Shown piece by piece: positions 1 to 35,805 of a stretch of DNA of 64,000 nucleotides. A program made the translations under genes and the position numbers. Source of the DNA: Tubulanus polymorphus (taxonomy: Eukaryota; Nemertea; Palaeonemertea; Tubulaniformes; Tubulanidae); assembly GCF_964204645.1 (NCBI RefSeq), contig NC_134028.1, positions 24,278,153 to 24,342,152 of the forward strand. The letters are read 5' to 3'. The notes under the pieces were generated by a model, which was not told where the DNA came from, did not search any database, and worked only from the letters and a program-made list of their open reading frames with translations. Every line of letters begins with the position of its first letter. Position 1 is the first letter of the stretch.

Positions 1-3000
1 ATATTTTTGAAATTTTAACATGCTTCACATAGCATATGCCCAGGGTGAATTTTGTCAGCAATCTTTCTTGAAAATCACCTTTATCGACAACTTGTCCCCA
101 TTAAAATGTTGACATCCCTGTAGTATGATCCTATCTGGCCTACTAGGGCTAGTTTCGTGAAAGGTCAAATTCAAATTTTCTGGTGTAGGCCTATTGGTTT
201 CTTCACATTTTCGATTCGGAAAACAATTCAAACTTAACTATTTTGAGCTTGAACTTTTTCCAGAAACTGATTTTTAAATCCATCGTATTTCATATTTACA
301 GGACATTCAAGATATTCAAGCAATTATCGAAAAAACGTCGTCTTGCGAAAATGTGTTTTTCATCGTGAATAAGATCGACCCTCAGCCGAAACGCGGGACA
401 AGTTCTTCCGACGAGACCGATTCCGATGAAACGGACGACGACAGCGAATCCGAAGACGACATCATCAAACGAGAGCAAGGCATCAAAGCAAAAATATTCA
501 ATAAGCTCGTCCGTGCCAAATTCATCAACAAAAAATATGAAAATAAAATGGATGATTGTCCGAATTTCCACGCTTTATCGTCATGGGAAGTGAAGACATA
601 CCGAAGAACCTACCAAAAAAATCCAGCGATGGCTGAAAAAACACGTTACGTAGATCATTTCTACCGATTTCAGAAATGTTTGAATGACTACATCAAAGAA
701 CAATTGGATCGAAAGATTAAGACAGCAATTGACGGCATTTTGATGTCCCACTGCAGATGTTTAGATTTTTTCATTCTGACCGCGAACGATATCAGCAAAA
801 CGCAACGATCCGTCGAGAAGGATATGCTCGATTTCGCTAAACAAGAACAGAGTCTGTACAGGAATGCTACCGAAATGATTGACCAGCAAGCTTCGGATTT
901 TAATAAGCTCCTGGTTGAAAGGATGGCCTTGAAAAACAACGATATTATCAGCGCAGTTGGGCAGTACGAATACCAAGAGGAAGAGCTGAAGGTGACGATT
1001 ACCAGAGATAAAAGAATTAAAGATTCAGAGTTTGTAGACCGCTGTAAACGTAAGATCGTTGAAGTAACGCAAAGATATCTCAGCGAAGAGATCACCAATC
1101 TTTTAGTAGAAAAGTTTAATCAAGGGGACATGCTATTGTCGGAATTAGCTTCACGCGTAGAGGCACTAGGGAGTGACGATGGGTATCAAGGCGCGGCTCG
1201 AGTCCTGAGGAAAACGCTCATAGAGTGTTACCAGTTCGATTTAGTTGGCAGAGAGTTTAAAAAGAATATATTGCAAAAAGCGTGGAGTGCCGTGGTACGA
1301 TTTTTCAGCAGTATAGCGAGTTTATTCTCCCGAAGTGTTGCTGTTGGGGAGCCACGTTGGAAAGAATCAGTCGCGTCTGCAACTTTGAGTGAAGTCGACC
1401 ACGCACAACTTACGAAATTTGTTCTCGAAGGAGTCAAGGAACATGTCACATTCGGACATAGTAAGTTTGAAAATGAAATGGCCAATCTGCAGCAGATTCA
1501 TGAATCGAATTGCGCAATGGGTGAAGCGGAAAGGAAGAAGTTGACCAATCAAGCACCAACAGTTGCTCAGTTGCAGCTCGACGCTTTTGATCTGAATGAT
1601 CGATTCACATACAACAATATCGTATTGTTAGAAACTATTGGAAAAGGCAGGTGTTTTCAAAGCATTCATATATAGAATTACTGCCCTATACTGCACTACA
1701 CTTGAAGTTAATGATAATATTCCTTATCGTTCCGCGATTTTAGGGGCACAAGGCGTTGTATATGGTACCACAGTCAAAGGACCTGATGGCGAAGATTGCG
1801 CCGTGAAAGTCATCAAGTACCAAAGTAATCAAGATTTAGGCGATTTGGCACTTGAAATTCATTACACCAGGTAATATAGCAGAATCACTTGAATTACAAT
1901 GTATCATTGTTTTTTTGTAGCAGTTTCTAATTGTTTGCATGAATTTTCAGACAATTCAAGCACGAGAATATCATGCCTTTATATGCGTCAGTGCTGATGC
2001 CTAGAACGTCAGAGTTATACCTACTATCACCGCATATGGATGGCGATTTGATGCAGATGATACCAGGAATCAAAAGCCTTCGAGAACGGTTAGGAATCGC
2101 ACTTCAAACAGCTAATGCGCTGAGCTATTTGCACAGCAGAGATATGAGCCACAGAGACATCAAATCATCGAACATCTTAGTAAGTATATCGAATTCAGTA
2201 GATACCTTTTGTCAGTAACCGAACAATATGGTTTAGTTAGGCTAAAAAAAATTGATACCTTGTTTCTCCACTCTGCTGAGCTTAAATGTTGACCCGGCCA
2301 GCCGCCTATCTACCCTATACATTACTTTTTAAAAAATTGTGATCAATTTTACCATAACAGACCCGGCCGCTATAGAAATGAACTGTTTACAAATTTTATC
2401 ATATTTTACAAAAATGACCCGGCCGCTGCGGAGAAACAAGGTATCATTTTTGTATAGCCTTATACAATATTTTCACGAATCATCGACTTATCTTTCACTC
2501 ATCTCAGACCTATTCTGCTCATCATGGTTTGTCCGAGTTAGACGGAGTTTATTACCGCACTTATGCAGATACGATATTGATTAGATTATAACCATTTTAA
2601 AAATTTCCACCACTCTAATACTAATAGCTAAAGTCCACTCTCTGTCTCCACTGTATTCCGGAAGTCTGAATAAATACTACAAAATATTTCAGATTGCTAA
2701 ACGGAGTAAGGGCTACAAGGCAATTATAACGGATTTCGGTTTGATGAAACCGGTCGGTTTACAGCAACATTCATTTGTTGGAACGCCGATTCACATAGCT
2801 CCCGAAATCTTACAAGGAAAACATTACGATACGTCGGTCGACATCTTCTCGTTCGGGATATTGTTGTGGTATATCTGCGAAGGTAACGGTAACAGACATC
2901 CCGAGTATGCCGATTATTGCCAAGGCGTTGGACCGATATTGATCGTGTCCGCCCAAGGTAAACGACCCGAAAGGAAAGATTATTTCACCGAAGATTGCTG

Positions 3001-3106
3001 GAGATTAATGACGAAATGCTGGGATCACAATCCGGTTGCTCGACCGAAAGCTGATGATGTCGTCACTGAGCTGAAAATGATTCGTGCCAAGCCATTACCA
3101 TCTTAA
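1..3106 (+). CDS. DSTYK: DSTYK-like dual-specificity kinase, copy A (5' part outside window)
   Basis: Partial gene; the first exons lie left of the window. Visible coding exons are 302-1646, 1744-1870, 1951-2179 and 2693-3106. They encode the end of a dynamin-like GTPase domain (G4 motif NKID), an acidic Ser/Asp/Glu stretch, a long helical middle region and a C-terminal protein kinase domain with glycine loop (GKGAQGVVYG), VAIK-type Lys (CAVKVIKY), HRD (SHRDIKSSN), DFG and APE. This order matches the DSTYK (RIP5) family, which in vertebrates acts in FGF/ERK signalling and cell death. All exons are open and every catalytic motif is intact, so the copy looks functional. It differs from copy B by scattered substitutions, several of them missense (for example ILQGK versus IIQGE after APE). 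The first intron uses a GC donor at 1647. Its 3' flank runs into a broken RNF2 fragment. Confidence 0.85.
1647..1743 (+). other. GC-AG intron in DSTYK copy A
   Basis: The exon ends ...GGA AAA G and the next begins GG GCA CAA, giving the canonical kinase loop GKGAQG only if the donor is GC (AAAG|GCAGGT). The nearest GT, four bases downstream, puts the next exon out of frame. The acceptor is TTTTAG. The identical arrangement in copy B is at 11119-11215. Confidence 0.75.
2254..2445. repeat. Fold-back element in DSTYK-A intron
   Basis: Perfect 16-bp terminal inverted repeats GATACCTTGTTTCTCC (2254-2269) and its complement (2430-2445) enclose about 190 bp with three copies of GACCCGGCC. The same element sits at 11726-11917 in copy B, so it was inserted before the duplication. 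Probably a small non-autonomous DNA transposon. Confidence 0.7.
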
Positions 3107-4390
3107 TTATATTAAGACTAATGTGTTATTAGGACTAATGAGTATTACAAATGATTCCAGATAATATGAGGGAATGATTTCAAATGGGGCCAGCCATTTA
3201 TTAACTTTTTCCTACAATGAAACTTGTTATAACGTCTTCGGATTTTACTATTTATAGGTAAGCACAAACCTAGCGTTTTGACCTGAATACAACAAATTTA
3301 GTAATTTCATACTGGATATAAAATGAACATATTTTCTGGGCCTCTGAAGTTCATTGTGATGAAGTTTCACTGTAGTGCCAAGGATGTGTATTGCATTCTT
3401 TATGTTAGAAAATAACTGCTGCTGAATTTACTATCAAAGTGCTGAAAATATTGAAGGACTGAATATGCTCATATTGTTTTACTAAAATATCCTAAGTCAA
3501 AGAAATAGTGTTGAATACATTCAATGTCATTGATTTTTATTGTTTGATAATGAAAAATACACAAGAAGTTAATATTTCTACAGTTTTTAGCAAGTTTAAT
3601 TAGTACAGCATACTCCGCTCGAATCGGACCTGATCAACTCAGATAACCACACAACTTAGGATGTTTGTTGAAATATTATCTTAAAAACTATTTACGAAAT
3701 ACATAACATCCAAGTCGGATGGAACTCAAGTCGGATACATTTTTACCAGAAGGTCCTACTTGCGCGGAGTCTACTGTAGAAATCATGTACATTTTATTTT
3801 TGGTTACCGTACATCGATAATGAAAAATAAATTATTTTCATAAATCAGTTCTTCACGAGTGACACAATTAATGATGGGTTTTGTGCCATTGAGAGGATGA
3901 ACAGATCTTTTAATGGTGAAAAACGCTCATGAAATTCATATGCGAATTATGGTTCACCGCAGTAATGTACATGATTTATTTCTGAAACAACGTAAAATAC
4001 AACACAAAAGAAATTACTCGACGATAACAATTTATAGTAAAACGGACACATCTTCAACCTACGAGATGAAACACTGAAAATTAAATGCAATCTGGTCGTC
4101 CATTCTCGAATTCAAAGACTATTTTAGGCCTCGTTTGATGAAATATGATATATATTTTTCATCACGATGGTGACTTTAAGAAGGCGTTATTCGAAAATGT
4201 TTTGCGCGAAATATAGTTGAGACAGGCACATCATCCATTTGTTACAATTCGGTAAAATTTTCTGTTCATCTCCTTCCCTACCACACAGACATTTACAATC
4301 ATTAGAACTTTCATGCCTACTTTTAAAGGAAGGAACCTTAAAAAACCCGAATCTCATGAACTTTGAACTGTCCCTCACGAGCTGAAAAAT
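3107..4390. other. 3' flanks of DSTYK-A and of the RNF2 fragment
   Basis: Non-coding stretch between two convergent 3' ends. It is duplicated at 12579-13862. AT-rich with no supported open frame; short frames in it are not conserved families. It probably holds the DSTYK 3' UTR on the plus strand and the former RNF2 3' UTR on the minus strand. Confidence 0.5.
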
Positions 4391-4727
4391 TTATTGTAAA
4401 TTTTTGCTATCCTTCGTTGAATTTGTGGATTTTTGTTTTTCGTCGCTGTCTTTTTGTAACGAATAGAACATTTCGAGCGGTTTATTGACGCGCCAGTATT
4501 TCTCGTTGACCTGTTCGAGTTGTTTGTTTCCATTCAACGGCACGAAGGTTCCAGGGGATGTGGCTATAGCTATCGTATACTTCTGATCATCTGCTCGCGC
4601 GGTTCCTATAAGATACAATACGAATAATGACTGATTGAAGAACTGCCGGTAGATACCAATCTGGCTTGAGAAAATATTTGAATACCTGGTTCTCCTGATC
4701 TTTGGGCTTCTAAGGAAAGGCGCATTG
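4391..4727 (-). pseudogene. Truncated RNF2 3' fragment (RAWUL tail only)
   Basis: Duplicate of the last two RNF2 coding exons. The final exon (4391-4605) is intact, with the same reading frame and stop as the real gene. The preceding exon (4686-4727) keeps its donor but only 42 of 66 bp, because the duplication ends inside it and the satellite begins at 4728. It lacks the RING domain, the linker, the acceptor and any promoter in view, so it cannot make RNF2 protein. It could still be transcribed antisense to DSTYK-A. Confidence 0.9.
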
Positions 4728-7700
4728 GTTTGTCAATCATTTAGACTTAGAAAAAAGGCAAATATTGTTTCAAAAAGCTCCTAAAATCACGCTGTCTTCT
4801 ACATGGCGTGTCAAGCCCCAAACGGTCTGCAGAATAACTTCAATTGAGACATGGCGTGAGAGGACCCGATCGATTTTCCGTACAAACAAATGAATAATTG
4901 TCATTAATTATCATAAATATTCAAAGATTTATCATTCGCCGTGGATTGTCAGTCATTTAGACTCAGAAAAAAGGCAAATATTGTTTCAAAAATAGCTCCT
5001 CAAATCACGCTGTCTTTCACATGGCGTGTCAGGCCCCAAATGTTCTGCAGCCAATATGGCGTGTCAGGCCCCAAACGGTCTGCAGAATAGCTTCAATTGA
5101 GACATGGCGTGAGAAGACCCGAACGATTTTCCGTACAAATAAATGAATAATTGTCATTGATTATCATAAATATTCAAAGATTTATCATTCTACGTGGATT
5201 GTCAATCATTTAGACTCAGAACAAAAGGCAAATATTGTTTCAAAAAGCTCCTAAAATCACGCTGTCTTCTACATGGCGTGTCAAGCCCCAAACGGTCTGC
5301 AGTCAATATGGCGTGTCAGGCCCCAAACGATTTTCCGTACAAACAAATGAATAATTGTCATTAATTATCATAAATATTCAAAGATTTATCAGTTTGTCAA
5401 TCATTTAGACTTAGAAAAAAGGCAAATATTGTTTCAAAAAGCTCCTCGAATCACGCTGTCTTCTACATGGCGTGTCAGGCCCCAAATGTTCTGCAGTCAA
5501 TATGGCGTGTCAGGCCCCAAACGGTCTGCAGAATAGCTTCAATTGAGACATGGCGTGAGAAGACCCGAATGATTTTCCGTACAAACTAATGAATAATTGT
5601 CATTAATTATCATAAATATTCAAAGATTTATCATTATACATGGTTTGTCAATCATTTAGACTTAGAAAAAAAGGCAAATATTGTTTCAAAAAGCTCCTCA
5701 AATCACGCTGTCTTTCACATGGCGTGTCAGGCCCCAAATGTTCTGCAGTCAATATGGCGTGTCAGGCCCCAAACGGTCTGCAGAATAGCTTCAATTGAGA
5801 CATGGCGTGAGAAGACCCGAACGATTTTCCGTACAAACAAATGAATAATTGTCACTAATTATCATAAATATTCAAAGATTTATCATTCTACATGGTTTGT
5901 CAATCATTTAGACTTAGAAAAAAGGCAAATATTGTTTCAAAAAGCTCCTAAAATCACGCTGTCTTCTACATGGCGTGTCAAGCCCCAAACGGTCTGCAGA
6001 ATAACTTCAATTGAGACATGGCGTGAGAGGACCCGATCGATTTTCCGTACAAACAAATGAATAATTGTCACTAATTATCATAAATATTCAAAGATTTATC
6101 ATTCTACATGGTTTGTCAATCATTTAGACTTAGAAAAAAGGCAAATATTGTTTCAAAAAGCTCCTAAAATCACGCTGTCTTCTACATGGCGTGTCAAGCC
6201 CCAAACGGTCTGCAGAATAACTTCAATTGAGACATGGCGTGAGAGGACCCGATCGATTTTCCGTACAAACAAATGAATAATTGTCATTGATTATCATAAA
6301 TATTCAAAGATTTATCATTCTCCGTGGATTGTCAGTCATTTAGACTCAGAAAAAAGGCAAATATTGTTTCAAAAATAGCTCCTCAAATCACGCTGTCTTT
6401 CACATGGCGTGTCAGGCCCCAAATGTTCTGCAGCCAATATGGCGTGTCAGGCCCCAAACGGTCTGCAGAATAGCTTCAATTGAGACATGGCGTGAGAAGA
6501 CCCGAACGATTTTCCGTACAAATAAATGAATAATTGTCATTGATTATCATAAATATTCAAAGATTTATCATTCTACGTGGATTGTCAATCATTTAGACTC
6601 AGAACAAAAGGCAAATATTGTTTCAAAAAGCTCCTAAAATCACGCTGTCTTCTACATGGCGTGTCAAGCCCCAAACGGTCTGCAGTCAATATGGCGTGTC
6701 AGGCCCCAAACGATTTTCCGTACAAACAAATGAATAATTGTCATTAATTATCATAAATATTCAAAGATTTATCAGTTTGTCAATCATTTAGACTTAGAAA
6801 AAAGGCAAATATTGTTTCAAAAAGCTCCTCGAATCACGCTGTCTTCTACATGGCGTGTCAGGCCCCAAATGTTCTGCAGTCAATATGGCGTGTCAGGCCC
6901 CAAACGGTCTGCAGAATAGCTTCAATTGAAACATGGCGTGAGAAGACCCGAATGATTTTCCGTACAAACTAATGAATAATTGTCATTAATTATCATAAAT
7001 ATTCAAAGATTTATCATTATACGTGGATTGTCAATCATTTAGACTTAGAAAAAAAGGCAAATATTGTTTCAAAAAGCTCCTCAAATCACGCTGTCTTCTA
7101 CATGGCGTGTCAGGCCCCAAATGTTCTGCAGTCAATATGGCGTGTCAGGCCCCAAACGGTCTGCAGAATAGCTTCAATTGAGACATGGCGTGAGAAGACC
7201 CGAACGATTTTCCGTACAAACAAATGAATAATTGTCATTGATTATCATAAATATTCAAAGATTTATCATTCTACGTGGATTGTCAATCATTTAGACTCAG
7301 AACAAAAGGCAAATATTGTTTCAAAAAGCTCCTAAAATTACGCTGTCTTCTACATGGCGTGTCAGGCCCCAAACGGTCTGCAGAATAGCTTCAATTGAGA
7401 CATGGCGTGAGAAGACCCGAACGATTTTTCCGTACAAACAAATGAATAATTGTCACTAATTGTCTTAAATGTTCAAAGATTAATCCTTCTATATGATTTG
7501 TCAATTATTTAGTCTTAGAAAAAAAGCAAATACTGTTACAAAAAGCTCCTAAAACCACGCTGTCTTCTACATGGCGTGTCAGGCCCCAAAGTGTTCTGCC
7601 GCCAATATGGCGTGAGAGTACGCGATCAGTTTTCTATGGAAGCAATTAATTGTCACTAATCATATCTTTAGTTTCAATTAGTTATATATTGTTCATAATC

Positions 7701-7880
7701 ATAAAGTCTAAGAAAAAAAAACAAATACTGCTAGAAAAATCGCGATTTGTCTTCTATATGGCGTGTCAGGCCCCAAACGGTCTACAGAATATAGCTTCAA
7801 TTTACATGGCGTGAGAGGACCCGATCAGTTTTCCGTAGAAATAAATGAAAAATTGTGACTGATTATCTTAAATTAGTACA
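4728..7880. repeat. Satellite array with higher-order structure
   Basis: About twelve regular units plus two or three degenerate ones at the right end. Unit lengths follow the order of about 216, 255, 190, 255, 256 and 210 bp, and this six-unit series then repeats, giving a higher-order period of about 1383 bp (GATTGTCAGTCATTTAG at 4944 and 6327). Each unit has an AT-rich part (TCATTTAGACTTAGAAA, AGGCAAATATTG) and one to three copies of an ATGGCGTG motif: ATGGCGTGTCAGGCCCC, followed by CTGCAG, or ATGGCGTGAGA followed by CCCGA. No coding potential. It starts exactly where the RNF2 fragment is cut. Confidence 0.95.
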
Positions 7881-8521
7881 ATAATCATTAAGTCTTAGAA
7901 ATAGGTTTATAAATCGTTGTTTCTATTTTGTTCATATGTAAAAATATACAAAATCGCTTATGTAAATGTAGCTGATGATCTCCTGATCGTCTCGCACCAT
8001 AACGGAAACCTGTAAAAAACATATTCGAAGAATTTTACATAAAAATCTTTCGATATATATGCATCTGAATATAGTTATGAAGTAAAAACGGGATATAATT
8101 TTCTTTCAAAGTGGTTGCACTGAACGGAATACTACAATATAACGTATAAGTACATATTATATTTAGACAATATTTAGTAAGTATATATTTAGACAATAAG
8201 TAAAGAAAAAATAGAAATTCATTACACATTGACATACCGGTACTTGAAATTATCTCATTCAGGTTTTACACGTCGTATCGGACTTAAAAACGTGGTCCGT
8301 TCGACGCGAACATATATCTTCGTTCCGCGTGAATTATATATAGTCCGCATTTTACTCGGGGCTTGTGACGCCATGTCAGATATGGCGTGACAAGCCCCGG
8401 GGCTTGTGACGCCATGTTCTGCTGATTCTTAAGATTGACTTCACTCAATAAATTTAATAGGGGCGGGGTATACTACAAAGAGGAGCTTTTCTACTTTTGT
8501 GGCTGATGTAACAAGCGGAAA
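7881..8521. promoter_or_regulatory. Upstream region of DSTYK-B with satellite-like palindrome
   Basis: Mostly AT-rich unique sequence. At 8357-8416 three copies of a GGGGCTTGTGACGCCAT-type motif lie in alternating orientation; the first two form a hairpin and the motif is the complement of the satellite core ATGGCGTG...AAGCCCC. The region lies 100-165 bp before the DSTYK-B start codon, so it is probably part of the promoter or 5' UTR. No TATA box can be assigned with confidence. Confidence 0.5.
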
Positions 8522-11500
8522 ATGGCAGGTTTTCAACGAGGCCAATCGATTTCTAGCAGTGAGGACACTTTGGAGAAAGGTTACGAAGAAATAAAATCTA
8601 CTTTCACTTTCTTCCGGGAAAATGGGCGTAAACTGGAAAAACTTTGTCGTGATACTAAGTGTATCTATGAAGAAATCGAAAAAGATCTAAGGGGGGTTAG
8701 CTTTCGGAAATCCCTTTCAAATTACCTTTTACTGGAAGGAGAGGAGAAAAAAGTTGAGCAACTCAAACATAATCCGAGTCTGATTTTTGTCGGTAAGATT
8801 CTTCTTTCGCTTTCTTGACTAATATTAACAGGCTTTATTTCCTTCATTGGGCTCTTGGTTTGTTTACGATTTACACGACATTCCTGTTTTAGGGCAAACC
8901 AAGGCTGGTAAAAGTTCGCTGATCAACGAACTGCTCGGCAAATCGCTGGTAACTTCGGATCAACGACCGTGCACCGCGCGACTCGTCAGGCTGACTTACG
9001 GCGATGTTGCGTTTCCGAAAATCACGATACTAAACCCCGATTCATCGGTGCACACACCGGCTGAACAGATAAAAACCTCCCACGTTCCGACGGAATTCGT
9101 TAATTTACCGTTTGAAGAACGCGATAACGAGACGACCGTTCAAACTAGCGTACAAGTTGAAGTCAAACATCAGTTGCTGGAAGCCGGCGTAGATATCATC
9201 GATTCTCCGGGGAGGAATGAAAATAAAACGTTGGATAACCTCGTTACGCAACAGATGGATTCAATACTGCCGTTAGTGATGTATGTAATTGATGGCAGAA
9301 ACTGCTTGACAAGTTCGGTAAAATATCAGTTACATTTTCATTTACATCACTGGATAATTGTACAATAGAACCAATAACAGCAACTGTTGACTCCAACAGT
9401 AGTCAGAAAATTTTTAAAAAACTGGGGAATTGGAAATTTGTGAATTTGATAGATTTTTCATTAAGCTGGAGGATATTTTTGAAATTTAAACATGCTTCAC
9501 ATAGCATATGCCCAGGGTGAATTTTGTCAGCAATCTTTCTTGAAAATCACCTTTATCGACAACTTGTCCCCATTAAAATGTTGACATCCCTGTAGTATGA
9601 TCCTATCTGGCCTACTAGGGCTAGTTTCGTGAAAGGTCAAATTCAAATTTTCTGGTGTAGGCCTATTGGTTTCTTCACATTTTCGATTCGGAAAACAATT
9701 CAAACTTAACTATTTTGAGCTTGAACTTTTTCCAGAAACTGATTTGTAAATCCATCGTATTTCATATTTACAGGACATTCAAGATATTCAAGCAATTATC
9801 GAAAAAACGTCGTCTTGCGAAAATGTGTTTTTCATCGTGAATAAGATCGACCCTCAGCCGAAACGCGGGACAAGTTCTTCCGACGAGACCGATTCCGATG
9901 AAACGGACGACGACAGCGAATCCGAAGACGACATCATCAAACGAGAGCAAGGCATCAAAGCAAAAATATTCAATAAGCTCGTCCGTGCCAAATTCATCAA
10001 CAAAAAATATGAAAATAAAATGGATGATTGTCCGAATTTCCACGCTTTATCGTCATGGGAAGTGAAGACATACCGAAGAACCTACCAAAAAAATCCAGCG
10101 ATGGCTGAAAAAACACGTTACGTAGATCATTTCTACCGATTTCAGAAATGTTTGAATGACTACATCAAAGAACAATTGGATCGAAAGATTAAGACAGCAA
10201 TTGACGGCATTTTGATGTCCCACTGCAGATGTTTAGATTTTTTCATTCTGACCGCGAACGATATCAGCAAAACGCAACGATCCGTCGAGAAGGATATGCT
10301 CGATTTCGCTAAACAAGAACAGAGTCTGTACAGGAATGCTGCCAAAATGATTGACCAGCAAGCTTCGGATTTTAATAAGCTCCTGGTTGAAAGGATGGCC
10401 TTGAAAAACAACGATATTATCAGCGCAGTTGGGCAGTACGAATACCAAGAGGAAGAGCTGAAGGTGACGATTACCAGAGATAAAAGAATTAAAGATTCAG
10501 AGTTTGTAGACCGCTGTAAACGTAAGATCGTTGAAGTAACGCAAAGATATCTCAGCGAAGAGATCACCAGTCTTTTAGTAGAAAAGTTTAATCAAGGGGA
10601 CATGCTATTGTCGGAATTAGCTTCACGCGTAGAGGCACTAGGGAGTGACGAAGGGTATCAAGGCGCTGCTCGAGTCCTGAGGAAAACGCTCATAGAGTGT
10701 TACCAGTTCGATTTAGTTGGCAGAGAGTTTAAAAAGAATATATTCCAAAAAGCGTGGAGTGCCGTGGTACGATTTTTCAGCAGTATAGCGAGTTTATTCT
10801 CCGGAAGTGTTGCTGTTGGGGAGCCACGTTGGAAAGAATCAGTCGCGTCTGCAACTTTGAGTGAAGTCGATCACGCACAACTTACGAAATTTGTTCTCGA
10901 AGGAGTCAAGGAACATGTCACATTCGGACATAGTAAGTTTGAAGATGAAATGGCCAATCTGCAGCAGATTCATGAATCGAATTGCGCAATGGGTGAAGCG
11001 GAAAGGAAGAAGTTGACCAATCAAGCACCAACAGTTGCTCAGTTGCAGCTCGACGCTTTTGATCTGAATGATCGATTCACATACAACAATATCGTATTGT
11101 TAGAAACTATTGGAAAAGGCAGGTGTTTTCAAAGCATTCATATGTAGAATTACTGCCCTATACTGCACTACACTTGAAGTTAATGATAATATTCCTTATC
11201 GTTCCGCGATTTTAGGGGCACAAGGCGTTGTATATGGTACCACAGTCAAAGGACCTGATGGCGAAGATTGCGCCGTGAAAGTCATCAAGTACCAAAGTAA
11301 TCAAGATTTAGGCGATTTGGCACTTGAAATTCATTACACCAGGTAATATAGCAGAATCACTTGAATTACAATGTATCATTGTTTTTTTGTAGCAGTTTCT
11401 AATTGTTTGCATGAATTTTCAGACAATTCAAGCACGAGAATATCATGCCTTTATATGCGTCAGTGCTGATGCCTAGAACGTCAGAGTTATACCTACTATC

Positions 11501-12578
11501 ACCGCATATGGATGGCGATTTGATGCAGATGATACCAGGAATCAAAAGCCTTCGAGAACGGTTAGGAATCGCACATCAAACAGCTAATGCGCTGAGCTAT
11601 TTGCACAGCAGAGATATGAGCCACAGAGACATCAAATCATCGAACATCTTAGTAAGTATATCGAATTCAGTAGATACCTTTTGTCAGTAACCGAACAATA
11701 TGGTTTAGTTAGGCTAAAAAAAATTGATACCTTGTTTCTCCACTCTGCTGAGCTTAAATGTTGACCCGGCCAGCCGCCTATCTACCCTATACATTACTTT
11801 TTTAAAAATTGTGATCAATTTTACCATAACAGACCCGGCCGCTATAGAAATGAACTGTTTACAAATTTTATCATATTTTACAAAAATGACCCGGCCGCTG
11901 CGGAGAAACAAGGTATCATTTTTGTTTAGCCTTATACGATATTTTCACGAATCATCGACTTATCTTTCACTCATCTCAGACCTATTCTGCTCATCATGGT
12001 TTGTCCGAGTTAGACGGAGTTTACTACCGCACTTATGCAGATACGATATTGATTAGATTATAACCATTTTAAAAATTTCCACCACTCTAATACTAATAGC
12101 TAAAGTCCACTCTCTGTCTCCACTGTATTCCGGAAGTCTGAATAAATACTACAAAATATTTCAGATTGCTAAACGGAGTAAGGGCTACAAGGCAATTATA
12201 ACGGATTTCGGTTTGATGAAACCGGTCGGTTTACAGCAACATTCATTTGTTGGAACGCCGATTCACATAGCTCCCGAAATCATACAAGGAGAACATTACG
12301 ATACGTCGGTCGACATCTTCTCGTTCGGGATATTGTTGTGGTATATCTGCGAAGGTAACGGTAACAGACATCCCGAGTATGCCGATTATTGCCAAGGCGT
12401 CGGACCGATATTGATCGTGTCCGCCCTAGGTAAACGACCCGAAAGGAAAGATTATTTCACCGAAGATTGCTGGAGATTAATGACGAAATGCTGGGATCAC
12501 AATCCGGTTGCTCGACCGAAAGCTGATGATGTCGTCACTGAGCTGAAAATGATTCGTGCCAAGCCATTACCATCTTAA
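8522..12578 (+). CDS. DSTYK: DSTYK-like dual-specificity kinase, copy B (complete)
   Basis: Complete gene in six exons: 8522-8792, 8893-9317, 9774-11118, 11216-11342, 11423-11651 and 12165-12578. They join to 2811 nt, 936 residues, close to the roughly 930 of vertebrate DSTYK. The start ATG is in AAAATGG context. Residues about 1-90 are helical and charged. A GTPase-like domain follows, with P-loop GQTKAGKS (about 91), DSPG as G3 and NKID as G4 (about 254), then an acidic insert, a helical stalk and a kinase domain from about 675 (Lys about 702, HRD about 790, DFG about 813, APE). The intron after exon 3 must use a GC donor at 11119 to keep the glycine loop in frame; the GT four bases on would shift it. 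The gene converges with RNF2 and is the downstream member of a recent duplication. Family assignment rests on domain order and motifs. Confidence 0.9.
11119..11215 (+). other. GC-AG intron in DSTYK copy B
   Basis: Same non-canonical donor AAAG|GCAGGT as in copy A. Exon phases (1 before, completed by GG after) give an open frame through the glycine-rich loop and a total coding length divisible by three. Confidence 0.75.
11726..11917. repeat. Fold-back element in DSTYK-B intron
   Basis: Copy of the element at 2254-2445, with the same 16-bp inverted ends and three GACCCGGCC motifs, located in the intron before the last DSTYK exon. Confidence 0.7.
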
Positions 12579-13862
12579 TTATATTAAGACTAATGTGTTA
12601 TTAGGACTAATGAGTATTATATATGATTCCAGATAATATGAGGGAATGATTTCAAATGGGGCCAGCCATTTATTAACTTTTTCCTACAATGAAACTTGTT
12701 ATAACGTCTTCGGATTTTACTATTTATAGGTAAGCACAAACCTAGCGTTTTGACCTGAATACAACAAATTTAGTAATTTCATACTGGATATAAAATGAAC
12801 ATATTTTCTGGGCCTCTGAAGTTCATTGTGATGAAGTTTCACTGTAGTGCCAAGGATGTGTATTGCATTCTTTATGTTAGAAAATAACTGCTGCTGAATT
12901 TACTATCAAAGTGCTGAAAATATTGAAGGACTGAATATGCTCATATTGTTTTACTAAAATATCCTAAGTCAAAGAAATAGTGTTGAATACATTCAGTGTC
13001 ATTGATATTTATTGTTTGATAATGAAAAATACACAAGAAGTTAATATTTCTACAGTTTTTAGCAAGTTTAATTAGTACAGCATACTCCGCTCGAATCGGA
13101 CCTGATCAACTCAGATAACCACACAACTTAGGATGTTTGTTGAAATATTATCTTAAAAACTATTTACGAAATACATAACATCCAAGTCGGATGGAGCTCA
13201 AGTCGGATACATTTTTACCAGAAGGTCCTACTTGCGCGGAGTCTACTGTAGAAATCATGTACATTTTATTTTTGGTTACCGTACATCGATAATGAAAAAT
13301 AAATTATTTTCATAAATCAGTTCTCCACGAGTGACACAATTAATGATGGGTTTTGTGCCATTGAGAGGATGAACAGATCTTTTAATGGTGAAAAACGCTC
13401 ATGAAATTCATATGCGAATTATGGTTCACCGCAGTAATGTACATGATTTATTTCTGAAACAACGTAAAATACAACACAAAAGAAATTACTCGACGATAAC
13501 AATTTATAGTAAAACGGACACATCTTCAACCTACGAGATGAAACACTGAAAATTAAATGCAATCTGGTCGTCCATTCTCGAATTCAAAGACTATTTTAGG
13601 CCTCGTTTGATGAAATATGATATATATTTTTCATCACGATGGTGACTTTAAGAAGGCGTTATTCGAAAATGTTTTGCGCGAAATATAGTTGAGACAGGCA
13701 CATCATCCATTTGTTACAATTCGGTAAAATTTTCTGTTCATCTCCTTCCCTACCACACAGACATTTACAATCATTAGAACTTTCATGCCTACTTTTAAAG
13801 GAAGGAACCTTAAAAAACCCGAATCTCATGAACTTTGAACTGTCCCTCACGAGCTGAAAAAT
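12579..13862. other. Convergent 3' flanks of DSTYK-B and RNF2
   Basis: Right-hand duplicate of 3107-4390. Probably contains both 3' UTRs; no supported coding sequence. Confidence 0.5.
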
Positions 13863-16096
13863 TTATTGTAAATTTTTGCTATCCTTCGTTGAATTTGTGG
13901 ATTTTTGTTTTTCGTCGCTGTCTTTTTGTAACGAATAGAACATTTCGAGCGGTTTATTGACGCGCCAGTATTTCTCGTTGACCTGTTCGAGTTGTTTGTT
14001 TCCATTCAACGGCACGAAGGTTCCAGGGGATGTGGCTATAGCTATCGTATACTTCTGATCATCTGCTCGCGCGGTTCCTATAAGATACAATACGAATAAT
14101 GACTGATTGAAGAACTGCCGGTAGATACCAATCTGGCTTGAGAAAATATTTGAATACCTGGTTCTCCTGATCTTTGGGCTTCTAAGGAAAGGCGCATTGC
14201 TAGATATTTTGCCAGATGATCCACTGGAATAGAAAACAATTTTTTTTTCAACACTTGCATCGTAGAATTCAGCATATTATCTTGGTTCTTGACTGGGTCC
14301 CTACAGATCAGTCATCCCTGGATATAAGGAGTTTCAAGGAGAAAATTTCAAAGAAGTGTCTGCATCACATTCACATAATAATTACTGTACACTCCTATCT
14401 CGGTGGTTTTGTAGGCAAATTTTTATCCTTTACACTACTACTACTTAAACTCTGTTTCTAATTTGTTAACCACCTAACTGGGTAAAAACAAATCCTGGTC
14501 CCCTGTACCGATTTAGGCATAGTTTACTGTACAACTACAAACTCATCCTCCCTCGGCACTGGATTCGAACCTGATGGCATCGCTACACTCAGCCACAGCA
14601 CGAACCCTGCCACAGTAGACCGGGTGCGCAGGTACATGCGCAGCTTTACCCCATAAAAACTTGCGGCACCAATCAGATCGCTCGTTGTATAATCGCTGAG
14701 GTAAATTTTGCGGAAGAACTATAAATGGGAAAACGGGGTTTAAATGAAACTGAATATCTGATTGGCTAATAATGACATCTTTTAAGCTGCGCACTCGGTC
14801 AAGTGTGGCAGGGTTTTGTACTTTGGCGAGTCTCGATGCCATCAGGTTCGAATCCCTGCCGGGGGAGGATGCTACAAACTAGACAAAAATTCAAAATTGC
14901 CTATTTCTCAACATTGAAAGAGTTTCAGGCATTTTGCTCAAATTAGAGGAGTTTTAAGCAACTTTAAGAACATTTTCTTCTTAGGAGGAATTTTTTAAGG
15001 AATCAAGGAGTTGTAGAGACCCTGTTGCACCACCCCTCACCAGCAAATAAAATTCCCCGACTTCTCTGTTATTCAAGAAGTGTCAGAATTTCCTGATCCT
15101 GCCGAGAAAACTAATCTGGATTTCCCCAATTTTCTCAGATCTGTAAGAACCCTGGAACCTGCTCAGCTCGGTCACTCACTCACCTGTAGCATTAGCGGTT
15201 GTTTTAATGTATCTAGTCTGCGATGGATCGTTCAAATCGGCCGGTTCTTCGCCCGGGTTCGGCTGCGGTCGAAATACCAACTCGATCTCGCTCAACCCGG
15301 TCAGAGCCGACGACGGTTCGGCGACCGTATCTTGAGACGATATTTCGGAACTCGCTTCTTCGTGATCGCCGTGAACGGACGAATTCGTCTCGGCGCCCGA
15401 TTCGCTGTTCGTACGCGGTCGTTTCGACGGTAAACTCGGACTGCACGAGCCGCTAGGGGGCAGCGTAGGCGTCGCGCGATCCGAATGACAGGCGTCCGAC
15501 TGCGATCCGGTGATCGTGTTATCCATGCTGTTCTCGTTACAGTTATCGAGCGAACCGGTCGTGCTGTTATTATCGTTCGATTCGGGCGCCGTTCCCGCCG
15601 GGAGAAGCGACGGATGTTTGCGTACTCTCTGCGCTCGATTCATCGCCTGTAAACGTAATCCCTCCTCGATACTCGACGTTAACGCCGACGTGCTGTGATG
15701 TTTATTCAGTTTGGCGAGAACGCGTTCCTGATGCGCTTCGTATTCGTCGCGACTCGGGTAGATCTTCGATATCAACGCGTCGAAGTTCGGATCGGGACGC
15801 AACGATCGCTTAGACACGAGTTTCTTACGACACGTCGGACACTCTTTGTTGCCGCTGCGCAAAGCGGTGATGATACAATCTTGACAGAATCGGTGCAAAC
15901 ATTCTTTAGTTGTCATCGTAGTTTTTAACATATCAAGACAAATCGGGCACATCAACTCACTGTGTAAACTACGAGGCGATACTGCTATTTCAGTGCTATC
16001 TGTTATAGCTTCTTGAGGCGTCCTGTGAAGCTCGTAAAGGCTTAATTCCCAAGTTTTATTGGGAGGTGGAATTTCGCTCGACATTTTGGTGATCAT
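13863..16096 (-). CDS. RNF2: RNF2/RING1-type Polycomb E3 ubiquitin ligase
   Basis: Three coding exons on the minus strand: 16096-15184, 14223-14158 and 14077-13863, joining to 1194 nt, 397 residues. The N-terminus carries the family signature [10 protein letters not shown], then a C3HC4 RING at about 50-89 (CPICLDML ... CPTCRKKL) and the [20 protein letters not shown] block. A Ser/Asn-rich low-complexity linker (about 150-280) follows, then the C-terminal RAWUL ubiquitin-like domain ([32 protein letters not shown]). RING1/RNF2 proteins are the catalytic subunits of PRC1 that mono-ubiquitinate histone H2A in the nucleus. The start could be the first ATG or MSSE four codons on. Intron 1 (14224-15183) contains a fold-back element. 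The promoter is shared head-to-head with HAP40. RNF2 is preferred over RING1 only because single invertebrate homologues are usually named so. Confidence 0.95.
14544..14871. mobile_element. Fold-back element with tRNA B-box-like termini, copy 1
   Basis: Terminal inverted repeats of about 39 bp begin CATCCTCCC at 14544 and end GGGAGGATG at 14871. Each arm contains GGTTCGAATCC or its complement, matching the Pol III B-box consensus GGTTCGANTCC, next to GATGGCATCG. Other copies are at 30541-30716 and 59226-59564. It sits in RNF2 intron 1. Confidence 0.8.
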
Positions 16097-25400: not shown

Positions 25401-28400
25401 ATTAGAATAAAAAACAGGCTGGAGTTAAAAATGTTGTGTCTTTGTCTGTTGTGATTTGAATATTTGTTACACAAAAATTCACTTGTAATCTTTTGAATTT
25501 TATGTAGTGGGTTTTAAACTAATAATCTCTAATTTTCTATGTCAGCGTGTATAGGCTACTATTCTACCGTCGGAAGATTTTTGTCCTAAATCAGGTTTCA
25601 CCATATTTTCAGCCAATGGAAACTGAGCCTGTGATTGATGATGTGGTTCCTGATGTTGGTGAACAGTTAGAAGTTAATAAACAGCCTTTATTGCAAATCA
25701 GATGTCTGGTGAGTCAATGAACCATTTAATATCAGTACAGCTAATTCAAGGTTCTCTTGAAATTTCTGGGAATCAGAACAAAGGAAATCTTTTAGCCCTC
25801 TTAACATTTGTATGAAATTTGTATGATATTTATTTGATATTTATTTGATATTATTTTAAAGGCTTGTAATAACTTGTTTGACAATAAATCTGACCTGTGC
25901 AGCCATCTACAAGAGCATGTTAAATCAATACCAGCACTTACGTGCGAAATCTGTAGCTTTACTGCCTGTTCAAACAAAGATCTACAAAATCACTTCATCG
26001 AACAGCATCAGGATCCGGTAAGCGTAAACCCGGTTTATATTCAACCACTACATTCATGTTCATACCTGATTGTAGCTAAAATTCTACATCGATCTTTTTC
26101 AGAGTGAAGATGAAAATGGCCAGAAAATTGTTGCTCATTCTGAAACGGACGCGGCTCTCGCAGGCATCAATATCGCGGATACAGATCGCGACTTGAACAA
26201 TTCAAATTTGACTCATCAACAAAAGAAGTATGTAGTGGGAGGCAGGAATATGAAATATTGTGAGAGAATTTTATTTCAATCTGTCCTGATTGTGATCACG
26301 GTTACCACTTTTATATTGTATCGTAACATGATGCGAAAAATTGCCGTGAATAAAGGATTTGTGTTAATTTACAGTGAAGCAGCCGTCGCTCTGACACAGT
26401 TATCAGATATGGGCTACACGGATAACGAATCGAACATCGCGACGGATTCCAGTTTGATGCCGAGAAATCATAAGTGTCCTTATTGTAATCGATTGTTTAG
26501 AGGACGCAGTTACCTTCGATTACATCTGCGTATACACACTGGTATGTAAGGCGAATTTAACTTGTCGAATCAGATTTGATTTTCCTAATCATAATTTGCT
26601 AGTCACGTGTAATCTAATCAAATTTAGATTTGCACAACAGGATGAATTTGACGCCTTGTTCCAAATGGCTGACAAGAAAATACTGTCCCACTTTATAAGA
26701 TATTGTTTCCTATGAATGAGTTTCAGGTTTCTCTTTCAGTTTTGACATTTATATCAGTTTTTCGAAAAAAAACGTATCTTCAAATCGTATCAAATCACCT
26801 CTGGGGTTTTGTAGTATTTCTACGGGGAGTGCTGGATGTATGTGAATAAAATGGAGGGAATTAGGTGGTACAGAAAACTTGTTTGAAGCAAGGGGCGTTC
26901 CTAAGGAAATTTGGTTTTAATGATTTGTCCCTTAATAAATAGGACTACTTCAATGTCCTGCATTGAAAATCCGAAAATATCTAGATCCAACTCTTTCAGT
27001 CAAGAAAGTGTCTGAAAGTTATTGGGTACTAGAAATTTTCAGGGGAGAAGGGGAGATATCTTCAGCCTGTGAACATTGTTCGTGAAGGTTAAAGCATTTT
27101 AACCATGAGAAAACTTGTTAACAATGAGAAGACCAGGGTCCTGACCCCTGAAGATATCGCTCTAGAATCACCCCTGCTTTTCAGGAAAATATTTGAAAGT
27201 TATCGGGAACTTTTAAGAAATAAACAGGGGGCATGAATCCTGTAACCTAGACTGTTGAAACACTGGCTCGAATTTTTACATTTTCATGTATTAATTTGTC
27301 AATCGCTGATTATTTGCAGGAGAAAGGCCGCATAAATGTCCGCATTGTCTGAAAGGATTCACAACTCGAGACGCGTTGAATAAACATCTGTTCGTACATA
27401 CTGAAGATCGTCAGTTTAAATGCGGCGAATGCGGCAAAATGTTCAAACGTATTTCACACGTGAAAGAACACCTGAAAATACATTCATCCGAACGACCGTA
27501 CGAGTGTAGCTGTTGTAATAAACGATTCAAAACTAGCGTGAGTTACACTTTACACACTATGAGTTACACATATCACACCTGAGCCATCATTAACCCTTTC
27601 AGTGCTGACTAGTTAATACCCTATAGTGCTAGAGATAATTTGAAAAATTTTAATAATTCCACCCTAGTGTGTTGAATAACAGGAACACCACTATAGTGGT
27701 CTACACAGCGGCGCGGTGTATCGTTAGTTACTAATATTTCACTGTTTGACAAGTGCTGCCATTTTTCAAGAGAGATAATTACTAATTACATCAATACACC
27801 GCAGTGCGGTGAACTAGCAAAATCCATCGCTGATTTATACATCGCACTGCAGTGTAGATGCACTGAAAGGGTTAAGATAACTTAGTTCTAACTGGTAGAC
27901 TGATATTAATCTCAGTATTTCAGAGTTTACCCTTTTAATGCTGACTAATTAATACCCTATAGTGCTGGAGATAATTTGAAAATTTTAAGAAATTCCACCC
28001 TAGTGTGTTGAATAACAGGAATACCACTATAGTGCGTCTACACCGCGGCGCGGTGTATCGTTAGTTACTAATATTTCACTATGTTTGACAAGTGCTGCCA
28101 TCTTTCAAGAGAGATGATTACTAATTACATCAATATACCGCAGTGCGGTGAACTAGCAAAATCCATCGCTGATTTATACACCGCACTGTAGTGTAGACGC
28201 CCTGAAAGGGTTAATGAACCTACTATTGTGACTTCACAGGGTTGCCACATACCTGGAAAACATCGAAATGATTTTCCTGCAGTATTCATCAGGCTTGATT
28301 TGTTCTTATTTTTCAGAACGCGTGTAAGGTACATATCCGTACTCATACGAGCACGGCGCCGTGGCAGTGCAGTTTCTGTTCGAAATCTTTTCGCGAGAAA

Positions 28401-31112
28401 GGTTCGCTCGAACGCCACTGGAGGAAACATACCGGTTCTAAACCGTACGAATGCAAGCATTGTAAACGACGTTTCTCCGAACACGGGACACTCAACAGAC
28501 ATCTTAGAGCTAAAGGTAAATCATAATCGGTTTTTAGATTGATTCATTTTCAGAGAGTCTTTGAATAAAGACCCCACGAGGAAGAATTTAAACCAACTGT
28601 ATACAAATTGAAGAGATTAGAAATGAAATTTATTCATCTACACGTGAAGTTAGAATGAAAAAGATTTAAGACACCGGGCTGGTTCCTCAGTTGAGACTTA
28701 AGTCCAAAAATGGTCTTAAATTTTTGGACTGGTCTTGTTAGAATGGTTATAGAGCTAAGATGGTCTTTAATTGGCATTAAGTCTAAGCCATGACTATGGA
28801 ACTGGGCCCTGATAGAGTTCAAAATATTGTCTTTTAATTTTTCCTTCTCACTCTTGATGAATAAATCTTTTAATTAAGTTGTTAATCTTTGTAAAATCTT
28901 TTAAATTTGTAAAGTGAGATAATTATCCCATTAATGTGCATTGGCTGCTATTCTGACTATAGACCAGGAGGTGCTGCCATCTAGCGGTGGATTAGCGAAG
29001 TGCATTTGGCATGAACAGGAAGCATTGAAATGGCATCAAGTTTGAACTGATTTTACTTCTGAACAGCTGAAAATGGGAATTATAAAGTGAAATCTATGAT
29101 TAAGTTAATCAGGAGCTTCATTACTGGGATTGTGTTAGTTTGAATAGTGAAGATGTATCGCCTAAATCAGTAGGAAATTTGGAATAAGTCATTGAATCCA
29201 CGTTTTTGAAACAAAATGGCTGCTGCGTCGAAAACGTTATCGATATTAGACAAATTACGTGCATTGACTCTAAAGTACGGGTTTATAACGTCGAGCAGTG
29301 CGCGTGAAGGGTTTACGCTGCATCACTACGGTCCGTGTGGCGCCGGTTTAAAACATAATCTCATCAACGAATGGACGAAAGCCGTTACGTTAGCGGAGAA
29401 TATCTCATTGATCGACGTGACCTCGGCGAGCGATGATCCCGAGGAAATCCGCAAGGCGGCGCTGTCGTATTATCCGCATTTGTTGCGATTGAATAACGAT
29501 CGTCTGCCGGTCGGGCTGATTTATCGCACAAACGAAAGACGCGACGATGACGAAATATCGAAGACGACCGGCGATGATCGATTTCTAATCGACAGTCGGT
29601 TTAGGGAGAGTTACGTGTTGTATCAGTTCGTGGCGCCGTTCACCGCCAGACGTTGGATCGATTACTGGGAACGACAGCGGATTCAGTGGTGGCGTCGATT
29701 CGCGAGGAATCCGTCGAATTTCACCGTCTCCGAGCGGAGCGGTAACGATTCATCGGATACGGCGGCGTCAGCTGGTCTTAATAATAATAATAATAATAAT
29801 AATAACGGAGGCGGAGGGAAGGATATTGTGAAAATCCGGTACGACTATCCGTGGGGACGAGATTGTATTGAAACGATCGCGAACTACGAACGAGAACCGC
29901 TCGACGAAGTCGGATTGAATTCGACGAAATTTCACGGAAAAGCCGGACGCAAAACGTATCTACCGTCGGTGCTCGAAATCAAGTTCAACGTCGAGCACGC
30001 GATACTCGTGAATTTATGCGACGCGTTCGCCGAGAAAAAACTCAAACGTAATCTACGCACCGTGCTACAGTTACATCGACGATTGGTACATTTTAAAGTC
30101 GCGGTGGCCGTGACTTACAGCGCAAGTTCGATGACCGAGGTACAAGAAGTCGCCGGGTACGTGACGAGGACTTTACTCGGCGCCGGAATCGTAACGCTGA
30201 ATTTGTGTAATCTGTCGAGTCAGTTGACGCAGAACGTGACGAAATGCGATCATATGGGTATACCGCACGTGTTGATCATCAACGAACAGTGTTTAACCGA
30301 CGGTCTCGTGCAACTACGCAATCGCGACACGACGCTAGAAGAACAAGTTCATCTCACGAAAATAGTCGAGAAATTGTTGAAATATAACCAAGCGTGAGGA
30401 GGGATGATGTAACGATAGAGATTAGTTTATAAGAAATCGTTAGGTATTAACTTCCAAAGCAATTTGATAAAGAGTAAACTCCGAATTGGTCCATCGGATT
30501 CTCCCTGCAAAATACTATCAAATTCGAATCAGTTCTTTCCCATCCTCCCCCGGCAGGGATTCGAACCTGATGGCATCGAGATTGCCACGGCACGAAACCC
30601 TGCCATAATCGACCGTGTGCGCATGTACCCGCGCACCCGGTCTACTGATGCAGGGGTTCGTGCCGTGGCTGAGTGAAGCGATGCCATCAGGTTCGAGTCC
30701 CTGCAGAGGGAGGATGTTCTTTCCTGATTTCCATCAATTATTTATAGTTGAAGGTTCTATTGTACTTAGAAATTTTCCCTACTCAAATTCATGACGAAGA
30801 TGACACATTGTTGTTGCTTCCAAGAATTCACTCAGACATGTGTTTTCTTCTGTTATTCTGTTATTCGAAGAATCGAAAACTACTTAAGCTCCGATCGAAA
30901 ACTGTAACGACAATTTGTAAGCAACTATATAGAAAAAAGGTTAAGTCGAATTCATCGACGTCACATTTGTATCGGCCGCATCCACCTAATAAAGCAACTC
31001 CAGTTGTAACGGAAATTAACATTCCAATTTCGAACTTAATATTTTGATTATAGGATTTTCTTTGATTTCATACATTGATTAGTGAGTTCTATAGAAACTC
31101 GTTAACTATACG

Positions 31113-34079: not shown

Positions 34080-35805
34080 TCACAGCGCTGTATCCGGGAA
34101 TTTTTTTGCTTGAGCTCGTACGCGTCGTTCGTATTCGTTTTTGTCTTGACTGAAAAAGATTAAATTACGTGAATTCAGCCGAGAAAATACAACGTTCATC
34201 GATGTCCTATGATACAATACACACCAGTAAATAGTGTAAGCCTCGGCCTGAGCCGGATCTTTGATATTTGGGTCGTTTAAAAGATCCTGGATTCCCAACA
34301 AAATCTGAAATATTAAAAAACACCATTCGATAAAGATTTGTCCTTACTATTTTGACGCCGTAAAAACCGTTACAATAATGTTTAAATATCGTGAGTCGAT
34401 GTGCACTTCATCATCAATATCGTGAGTCGATGTGCACTGCATCATCAATATTGGTGTTTGAAAATAACGATAACTATCGTGAATTTTGGCGTTTATTTTG
34501 CAAAAATAATTTAGTTTTTCACTTATCTATTACCTGTTTTATAGTGACGGCTGGTCGCCAATCTTTATCCTCGTCCAACAACGACAGACAAACTGTCCCC
34601 GATGGATAAACATTCGGATGAAACAACGGCGGATCAAATTTACCTTTAAAGATAATCATCCAAAAAAAGAAAACCAGTGGATTTACATCCAATTTTCACC
34701 GAAAATTTCAACAAAACTCATATTCGTAACTCACATTTAGGTGGAGTTGTCGGATAATCATCTTTGAAAATCATTTTCAATTTGTACAGTCCGTTTTCCC
34801 AAGGCGTCTGCAAATATCAGATGGAAGAAAGACTTCATACTTAAAACATTCCTGCAACCATTAACCCTTTCAGTGCTGACTAATTAATACCCTATAGTGC
34901 TAGAGAAAATTTGAAAATTCTAAAAAATTCCACCCTAGTGTGTTATACAATGGGAATACCACTATAGTGCGTCTACACCGCAGTGCGGTGTATCGTTAGT
35001 TACTAGTATTTCACTATGCTTGACACTTGCTGCCATTTTTCAATAGAGATAATTACAAATTACATCAATACACCGCAGTGCAGTGTACTAGCAAAATCCA
35101 TCACTGATTTATACACCGCACTGCGGTGTAGACGCACTGAAAGGGTTAAACATAACAAACGAAGATGTACATACGCCTTTCTTTCCCGGGATAGCGCATT
35201 CCCACTCTTTATTATTCAGAGTGCCATCATCCTGCTTAGTCGGTCGAGCCACGAAGCCCTGTAAAAATTAGATCATTTAGGTTCATTAAATCGTAGTAAC
35301 ATTAAAACCCACTGTACTTTATACAAATTCAAAAGGTAAAACGCAAAATCTTTTTATCAAAAATTGAAAGCAGAGGACACCAGGTCTTTCCCTTGAGACC
35401 ATTGTCTTTCCCTTGAGACCATTGTCAGGTGCAAAGGAATGACTAATAACAGGGGTATATGTATATATACACTGGAGATTAATTGACTGATTAGACAATA
35501 AATGGTTCACAAGGCATGGGTAGTAATATACATGAAGAATATTACAATACTTGCTATAACAAGCACTAAAGAATTTGTGAATATTCAGCGAGTCAGGGAA
35601 AAATGATTATAACTGTATTATAGCATGAGTTCACTGGGGTTTGAAGCCACCACCTCTTGGTTGTGAGTCAAACATCCCAACCACTGAGCCATTTAAGACG
35701 GGACAGATTGCGGCTGAGGGTTGGGATTATATAACTTACAAATGGATGATCTTTTCTCCAACATTTTCTCTCTTCTATTAAACGTCCGACTGCTATTCCT
35801 GCCAT
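34080..35805 (-). CDS. UBE2I: UBE2I / UBC9 SUMO-conjugating enzyme
   Basis: Six exons on the minus strand: 35805-35740, 35258-35175, 34807-34735, 34643-34534, 34304-34225 and 34149-34080, joining to 483 nt, 160 residues (human 158). Family landmarks: MAGIAVGRL start, [30 protein letters not shown], the HPN motif and active-site Cys in [24 protein letters not shown] and [13 protein letters not shown]. The enzyme takes SUMO from the E1 and passes it to lysines of nuclear proteins. The last residues (KKFPDTAL) differ from the human KKFAPS. A piggyBac-type MITE occupies the second intron. Head-to-head with MINPP1. Confidence 0.97.
34861..35149. mobile_element. piggyBac-type MITE, copy 3
   Basis: Perfect TTAA on both sides, with CCCTTTCAGTGC and GCACTGAAAGGG ends; 289 bp. 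Lies in an intron of UBE2I. Confidence 0.9.

What the first reader, a model, noticed from the sequence alone, without database searches (positions are those of the whole stretch)
4686..4960. Satellite begins exactly at a duplication breakpoint inside an RNF2 exon
Left and right copies of the duplication match to 4727/14199. At that base, 42 bp into a 66-bp RNF2 exon, the left copy switches to the first satellite unit. The satellite may have been involved in the duplication or may have expanded at the new junction.
Basis: seen in the sequence. Interest (0 to 1): 0.75.

Follow-up and report, generated by a model that had tools for sequence, protein, structure and literature searches.

The report
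Broken jumping gene at duplication join
The "satellite" that starts inside a copied gene exon is the repeat-filled middle of a jumping DNA element that lost its left half when a neighbouring kinase gene was duplicated; the element family is new here, but the kind of event is already known.

Summary
The junction is real in the assembly. Left copy -1029..4727 matches right copy 8447..14199 at 99.43%. At 4727/4728, 42 bp into a 66-bp RNF2-like exon, the left copy switches to tandem repeats.

The repeats are not a stand-alone satellite. Window 4728-8446 is a 5'-truncated copy of a dispersed TIR DNA transposon ("B"), with about 35-40 copies found. B has fixed ends, 8-bp target duplications in 14 of 17 copies, and an internal array of about 190-250-bp units. 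The array is collinear with arrays elsewhere, so it was cut at the junction, not born there. B's right end is intact at 8446, next to target AATAAATT and 76 bp upstream of a dynamin-kinase start codon. The left copy carries AATAAATT-GAGT-AATAAATT there, which looks like an excision footprint.

Best history: B stood upstream of the gene; a tandem duplication with 2 bp of microhomology joined RNF2 to B's array; the intact left B excised. Other B copies hold or abut host-gene duplicates: a 5.3-kb GPCR segment on C8 inside intact ends, a GPCR exon on C1, a C11 segment. Duplication breaks in B elements therefore recur. The kind is known (Pack-TIR, gap filling). Without reads, misassembly is not excluded.

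The parts
1..4727 (+). Left copy of the duplication (continues upstream to -1029): complete dynamin-kinase gene (exons -954..3106) and a 3' fragment of the RNF2-like gene (minus strand)
   Evidence: 99.43% to 8447-14199; gene model open over 936 codons
4726..4728 (.). Duplication junction: RNF2 exon to array interior, 2-bp microhomology (TG)
4728..8446 (+). Transposon B, 5'-truncated copy: array about 4728-7614, unique right part, intact right terminus ...GATTGACTTCACTC
8447..8454 (+). AATAAATT, right copy of B's 8-bp target duplication; first bases of the right duplication copy
   Evidence: the left copy has AATAAATT-GAGT-AATAAATT at -1041..-1022
8447..14199 (+). Right copy of the duplication: dynamin-kinase gene (exons 8522-12578) and the RNF2 3' part
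14158..14223 (-). Intact 66-bp RNF2-like exon; the duplication ends at 14199 inside it

Best explanation
SHOWN: the 'satellite' is the internal tandem array of a mobile TIR DNA transposon family (B) with 8-bp target duplications. The window copy has lost its left end and keeps its right end, which abuts the dynamin-kinase gene at target AATAAATT. INFERRED: (1) B was inserted 76 bp upstream of the start codon of a single dynamin-kinase gene next to RNF2. (2) A break or stalled fork in B's array was joined, with 2 bp of microhomology, to a break in an RNF2 exon on a sister or homologous chromatid. This non-homologous unequal exchange or template switch made a tandem duplication of [part of B - gene - RNF2 3' end]. 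(3) The full-length B upstream of the left gene copy excised by cut and paste and left AATAAATT-GAGT-AATAAATT. The right B could not follow because its left terminus had been cut off. Excision may instead have preceded or triggered the duplication on one chromatid; the sequence does not decide the order.
For: Fixed element ends and perfect 8-bp target duplications in 14 of 17 two-ended copies. Window array collinear with L017 at 97.8% over 1.48 kb and 98.95% over 2.48 kb. No left end near the window, right end intact. The right duplication copy starts exactly at the target copy next to B's right end. The left copy holds two target copies 4 bp apart, as an excision would leave; among 12 AATAAATT sites in 84 kb it is the only one recurring within 28 bp. 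Only 2 bp of microhomology. Related events in other B copies: a captured 5.26-kb host segment on C8 inside intact ends, a GPCR exon on C1 and a host duplicate at a C11 right-end fragment.
Against: The footprint bases GAGT are the reverse complement of B's terminal ACTC, not its forward form. A chance 8-bp repeat beside the target is possible: the background for all-A/T 8-mers is about 4%. No reads, no other individuals and no related species were available. A causal role of B in the break is not shown; one break inside a 4-kb element could be chance.
Confidence: 0.66

Rival explanations
1. Unequal exchange between homologues: one homologue without B (empty or vacated site), broken in the RNF2 exon, was joined to the other homologue, broken inside its B array. 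The left copy never had B upstream after the duplication formed.
For: Explains B on one copy only. The 0.5-0.6% divergence could be allelic.
Against: With a never-occupied site the second AATAAATT next to the target would be chance. With a vacated site this merges with the best explanation.
Confidence: 0.17
2. Assembly artefact: two haplotypes (one without B, one with B) placed in tandem, or a chimeric read join, so that the duplication does not exist.
For: The copies differ like alleles, with a transposon present or absent; no reads could be checked.
Against: No gap in 84 kb. The join has only 2 bp in common, so no overlap could have created it. A contig end inside unique exon sequence is unexpected.
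Confidence: 0.12
3. Reversed-ends (alternative) transposition of B, as for maize Ac, made the tandem duplication directly.
For: Tandem direct duplication with an 8-bp-target element at the join and an excision-like footprint; duplications with fractured elements are discussed in PMC3744419.
Against: An intact element end should abut the distal breakpoint, but 4728 is array interior. The RNF2 site in the right copy shows no insertion or footprint.
Confidence: 0.03
4. A true satellite seeded or expanded at the new junction.
For: The array begins at the breakpoint.
Against: Same array, same order, between transposon ends at many loci.
Confidence: 0.02

Closest known systems
Pack-TIRs and TIR-transposon-mediated duplication in animals (Tan et al. 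2021, PMC8277862)
   Same: TIR element with host duplicate; breakpoints inside the element; microhomology of about 2 bp; nearby source. The C8 copy of B fits fully: host segment inside both ends with target duplications.
   Different: At the window locus the host segment is not enclosed by the element: the left half is missing and the result is a tandem duplication.
[quoted passage not shown]
   Same: Tandem direct duplication at an element with 8-bp target duplications; excision footprints.
   Different: Here one breakpoint is in the element's interior, not at an end.
Transposons with internal satellite-like arrays (Tetris of Drosophila virilis, PMC4079207; Helitron/Helentron satellites of the oyster, PMC8268682)
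   Same: Short tandem arrays dispersed as the middle of a mobile element.
   Different: B is a cut-and-paste-type element with inverted ends and 8-bp target duplications, not a Helitron; no sequence comparison with Tetris was made.

Membership tests
TIR (cut-and-paste) DNA transposon, 8-bp target group | Fixed ends, inverted repeats, 8-bp target duplications | tested here: met
   14 of 17 perfect 8-mers; imperfect inverted repeat of about 58 bp. The window copy itself has only the right end.
TIR (cut-and-paste) DNA transposon, 8-bp target group | Transposase of a named superfamily (hAT, P, KDZ/Zisupton) | tested here: inconclusive
   C11 10.6-kb copy has long ORFs with only weak BED (E 0.005) and OTU (E 0.013) matches. 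KDZ hits in this genome lie outside B copies.
Pack-TIR | Host segment enclosed by both ends of one element | tested here: not met
   Window: no left end. C8 copy: met.
Reversed-ends transposition duplication | Element termini at the duplication breakpoints | tested here: not met
   Terminus only at 8446; 4728 is array interior.
Non-allelic homologous recombination duplication | Long homologous repeats at both breakpoints | tested here: not met
   2 bp in common; no array right of 14199 or at the left border, where element A is a different family.
Classical satellite DNA | Stand-alone array not bounded by element ends | tested here: not met
   Arrays lie between B ends in all complete copies examined.
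Cut-and-paste excision footprint | Two target copies separated by a few bases at a vacated site | tested here: met
   AATAAATT-GAGT-AATAAATT at -1041..-1022; chance about 0.3-4%. No independent B footprint was available for comparison.

The most novel reading that the evidence does not exclude
The arrays inside B are recurrent sites of template switching, so that one transposon family repeatedly copies host genes (GPCR genes, the dynamin-kinase gene). In the window, excision of B and the tandem duplication would be a single repair event: the right broken end copied B leftwards, switched to the RNF2 exon, and ran back through the gene into the already resealed site.
Probability: 0.2. Interest if true: 0.6.

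Novelty: new member of a known kind. Interest (0 to 1): 0.4.

Why it matters
It gives a clear, ordered and recent case (copies 99.4% identical, both genes open) in which a repeat-bearing DNA transposon marks one breakpoint of an animal gene duplication. It comes with a footprint that may time excision against duplication, and with sister cases of gene capture in the same genome. It also warns that tandem arrays at duplication borders can be transposon interiors, not satellites.

Tried and rejected
1. The simplest idea, that the satellite is the left border of the duplicated unit in both copies: rejected, because upstream of the left copy lies a different element A, not B.
2. Element A as the border or recombination partner: rejected, because it has its own ends and 8-bp target duplication.
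3. B as a complete insertion at the junction: rejected, because the left end is missing and there is no target copy at 4727.
4. C8 as a second truncated B: corrected; it is complete with a captured segment.
5. KDZ/Zisupton assignment: not supported. Other superfamily assignment left open.
6. L053-L057 as further duplication borders: L054-L057 flanks are single copy; L053 is a B/A array chimera.
7. First gene model of the kinase had a frame error after exon 3; corrected with a GC-AG intron, and only one search is used.

Full report
Setting. The window is C4:24278153-24342152 of a 267.8-Mb genome in 77 contigs; the species was not identified. Positions below are window coordinates, and positions of 0 and below lie upstream of the window (loci L011, L012).

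Observation. The duplication is real as assembled. Left copy -1029..4727 and right copy 8447..14199 align over 5,757 columns with 29 substitutions and one 4-bp gap. Genome-wide the segment tested (12580-14230) exists only in these two places. The homology ends at 4727/14199, 42 bp into the 66-bp exon 14158-14223. That exon belongs to a RING/RAWUL gene, RNF2-like. In the right copy the exon continues intact; in the left copy the next base starts tandem repeats.

What the repeats are. DNA searches found the repeats on nearly all large contigs, together with a unique right-hand part. Fetching 14 loci showed an element with constant ends: left CATCTAGGGCAATCTTAAGACCTGC, right GATTCTTAAGATTGACTTCACTC. 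Fourteen of 17 two-ended copies have perfect 8-bp target duplications, and lengths run from 1.85 to 12.9 kb. The ends form an imperfect inverted repeat of about 58 bp starting at position 10. I call the family B. Its superfamily is open: a 10.6-kb relative on C11 carries long ORFs with weak BED-finger and OTU matches only, and the KDZ genes of this genome lie elsewhere.

The window copy. It spans 4728-8446, has the intact right end, and lacks the left end and the start of the array. Its array is collinear with that of L017: 97.8% over 1.48 kb at the junction side and 98.95% over 2.48 kb to the right end. The array therefore existed before the junction and was cut by it. All right ends compared stop at the base equivalent to 8446, and the right duplication copy starts at 8447 with AATAAATT, the expected target copy. 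The start codon of the right dynamin-kinase gene is 76 bp from the element's end.

The left copy's site. At the homologous place the left copy reads AATAAATT-GAGT-AATAAATT (-1041..-1022). This is what excision of an element with that target would leave. Among 12 AATAAATT sites in 84 kb it is the only one that recurs within 28 bp; any 8-mer recurs in 0.5% of cases, all-A/T 8-mers in about 4%. GAGT equals the reverse complement of B's last four bases, in the orientation opposite to the surviving B. That detail is unexplained. I take the footprint as probable, not proven.

Both genes. The dynamin-kinase gene (Dynamin_N plus protein kinase; the architecture recalls DSTYK, from my own knowledge) is open over 936 codons in both copies. 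Differences are 13 non-synonymous and 3 synonymous, pN 0.0059 against pS 0.0050. There is no sign of constraint between the copies, but numbers are small. The left RNF2 piece is a 3' fragment.

Recurrence. The C8 copy of B has both ends, target CAGAAATT on both sides, and a 5,263-bp insert 98.7% identical to C6. The insert contains GPCR-like reading frames (by eye) and ends in an exon joined to the array with 2 extra bases. A C1 copy holds a GPCR-like exon 96% identical to C7, against about 80% for the rest of that family. A right-end fragment on C11 abuts a segment 92% identical to one 1.7 Mb away. Other broken copies show array breaks without host duplicates: a B/A chimera (L053), truncations (L055, L057), and a copy cut in the array and joined directly to its own target copy (L056), as expected of aborted gap repair. 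Break positions in the repeat unit differ, so there is no fixed site.

Mechanism. The best account is a non-homologous joining of B's array to the RNF2 exon between chromatids, giving a tandem duplication, with loss of the complete left B by excision. Whether excision came before, after or as the trigger is not decided. NAHR and reversed-ends transposition fail their defining tests (for the latter compare PMC3744419). Exchange between homologues and a false haplotypic duplication remain possible.

Known or new. TIR elements that capture or flank host duplicates in animals, with breaks inside the element and about 2 bp of microhomology, are described by Tan et al. 2021 (PMC8277862). Transposons with satellite-like arrays are known (PMC4079207, PMC8268682). 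B is a further family of this kind. The window locus is a good but not unprecedented example.

Noticed in passing
L011, window -3194..-1059: Second repeat-bearing TIR element A (190-bp units, 8-bp target duplication GAAGTTCC), inserted just upstream of the left copy; at least 38 other hits in the genome, most ending at the same base.
   Followed up: partly
L024 + L044 (C8:10803495-10812916): Complete B element carrying a 5.26-kb segment from C6 with GPCR-like reading frames, plus about 2 kb of further non-B sequence between the left part and that segment.
   Followed up: partly
L053 (C3:3994070): Chimera: left half of B joined inside its array to the array of element A.
   Followed up: no
L056 (C3:21833778, minus): B cut in its array and joined directly to its own 8-bp target copy CAATTCAA: looks like a product of aborted gap repair.
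   Followed up: no
3854-4727 against 13326-14199: The last 874 bp of the duplication hold no difference between copies, although about 4 would be expected from the average; chance or later gene conversion.
   Followed up: no
11119-11215: The kinase gene seems to use a GC-AG intron: the frame of the glycine loop only closes with a GC donor.
   Followed up: partly
14538-14871, 30540-30716, 59225-59565: Inverted and palindromic repeats related to one another (MITE- or foldback-like).
   Followed up: no
27590-28214, 34859-35149, 44078-44364: A dispersed repeat of about 290 bp, twice in tandem at 27.6-28.2 kb.
   Followed up: no
C1:8695833-8697636, minus: A B left end lies about 16 bp beyond the right end of another B in the same orientation: near-tandem elements.
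   Followed up: no
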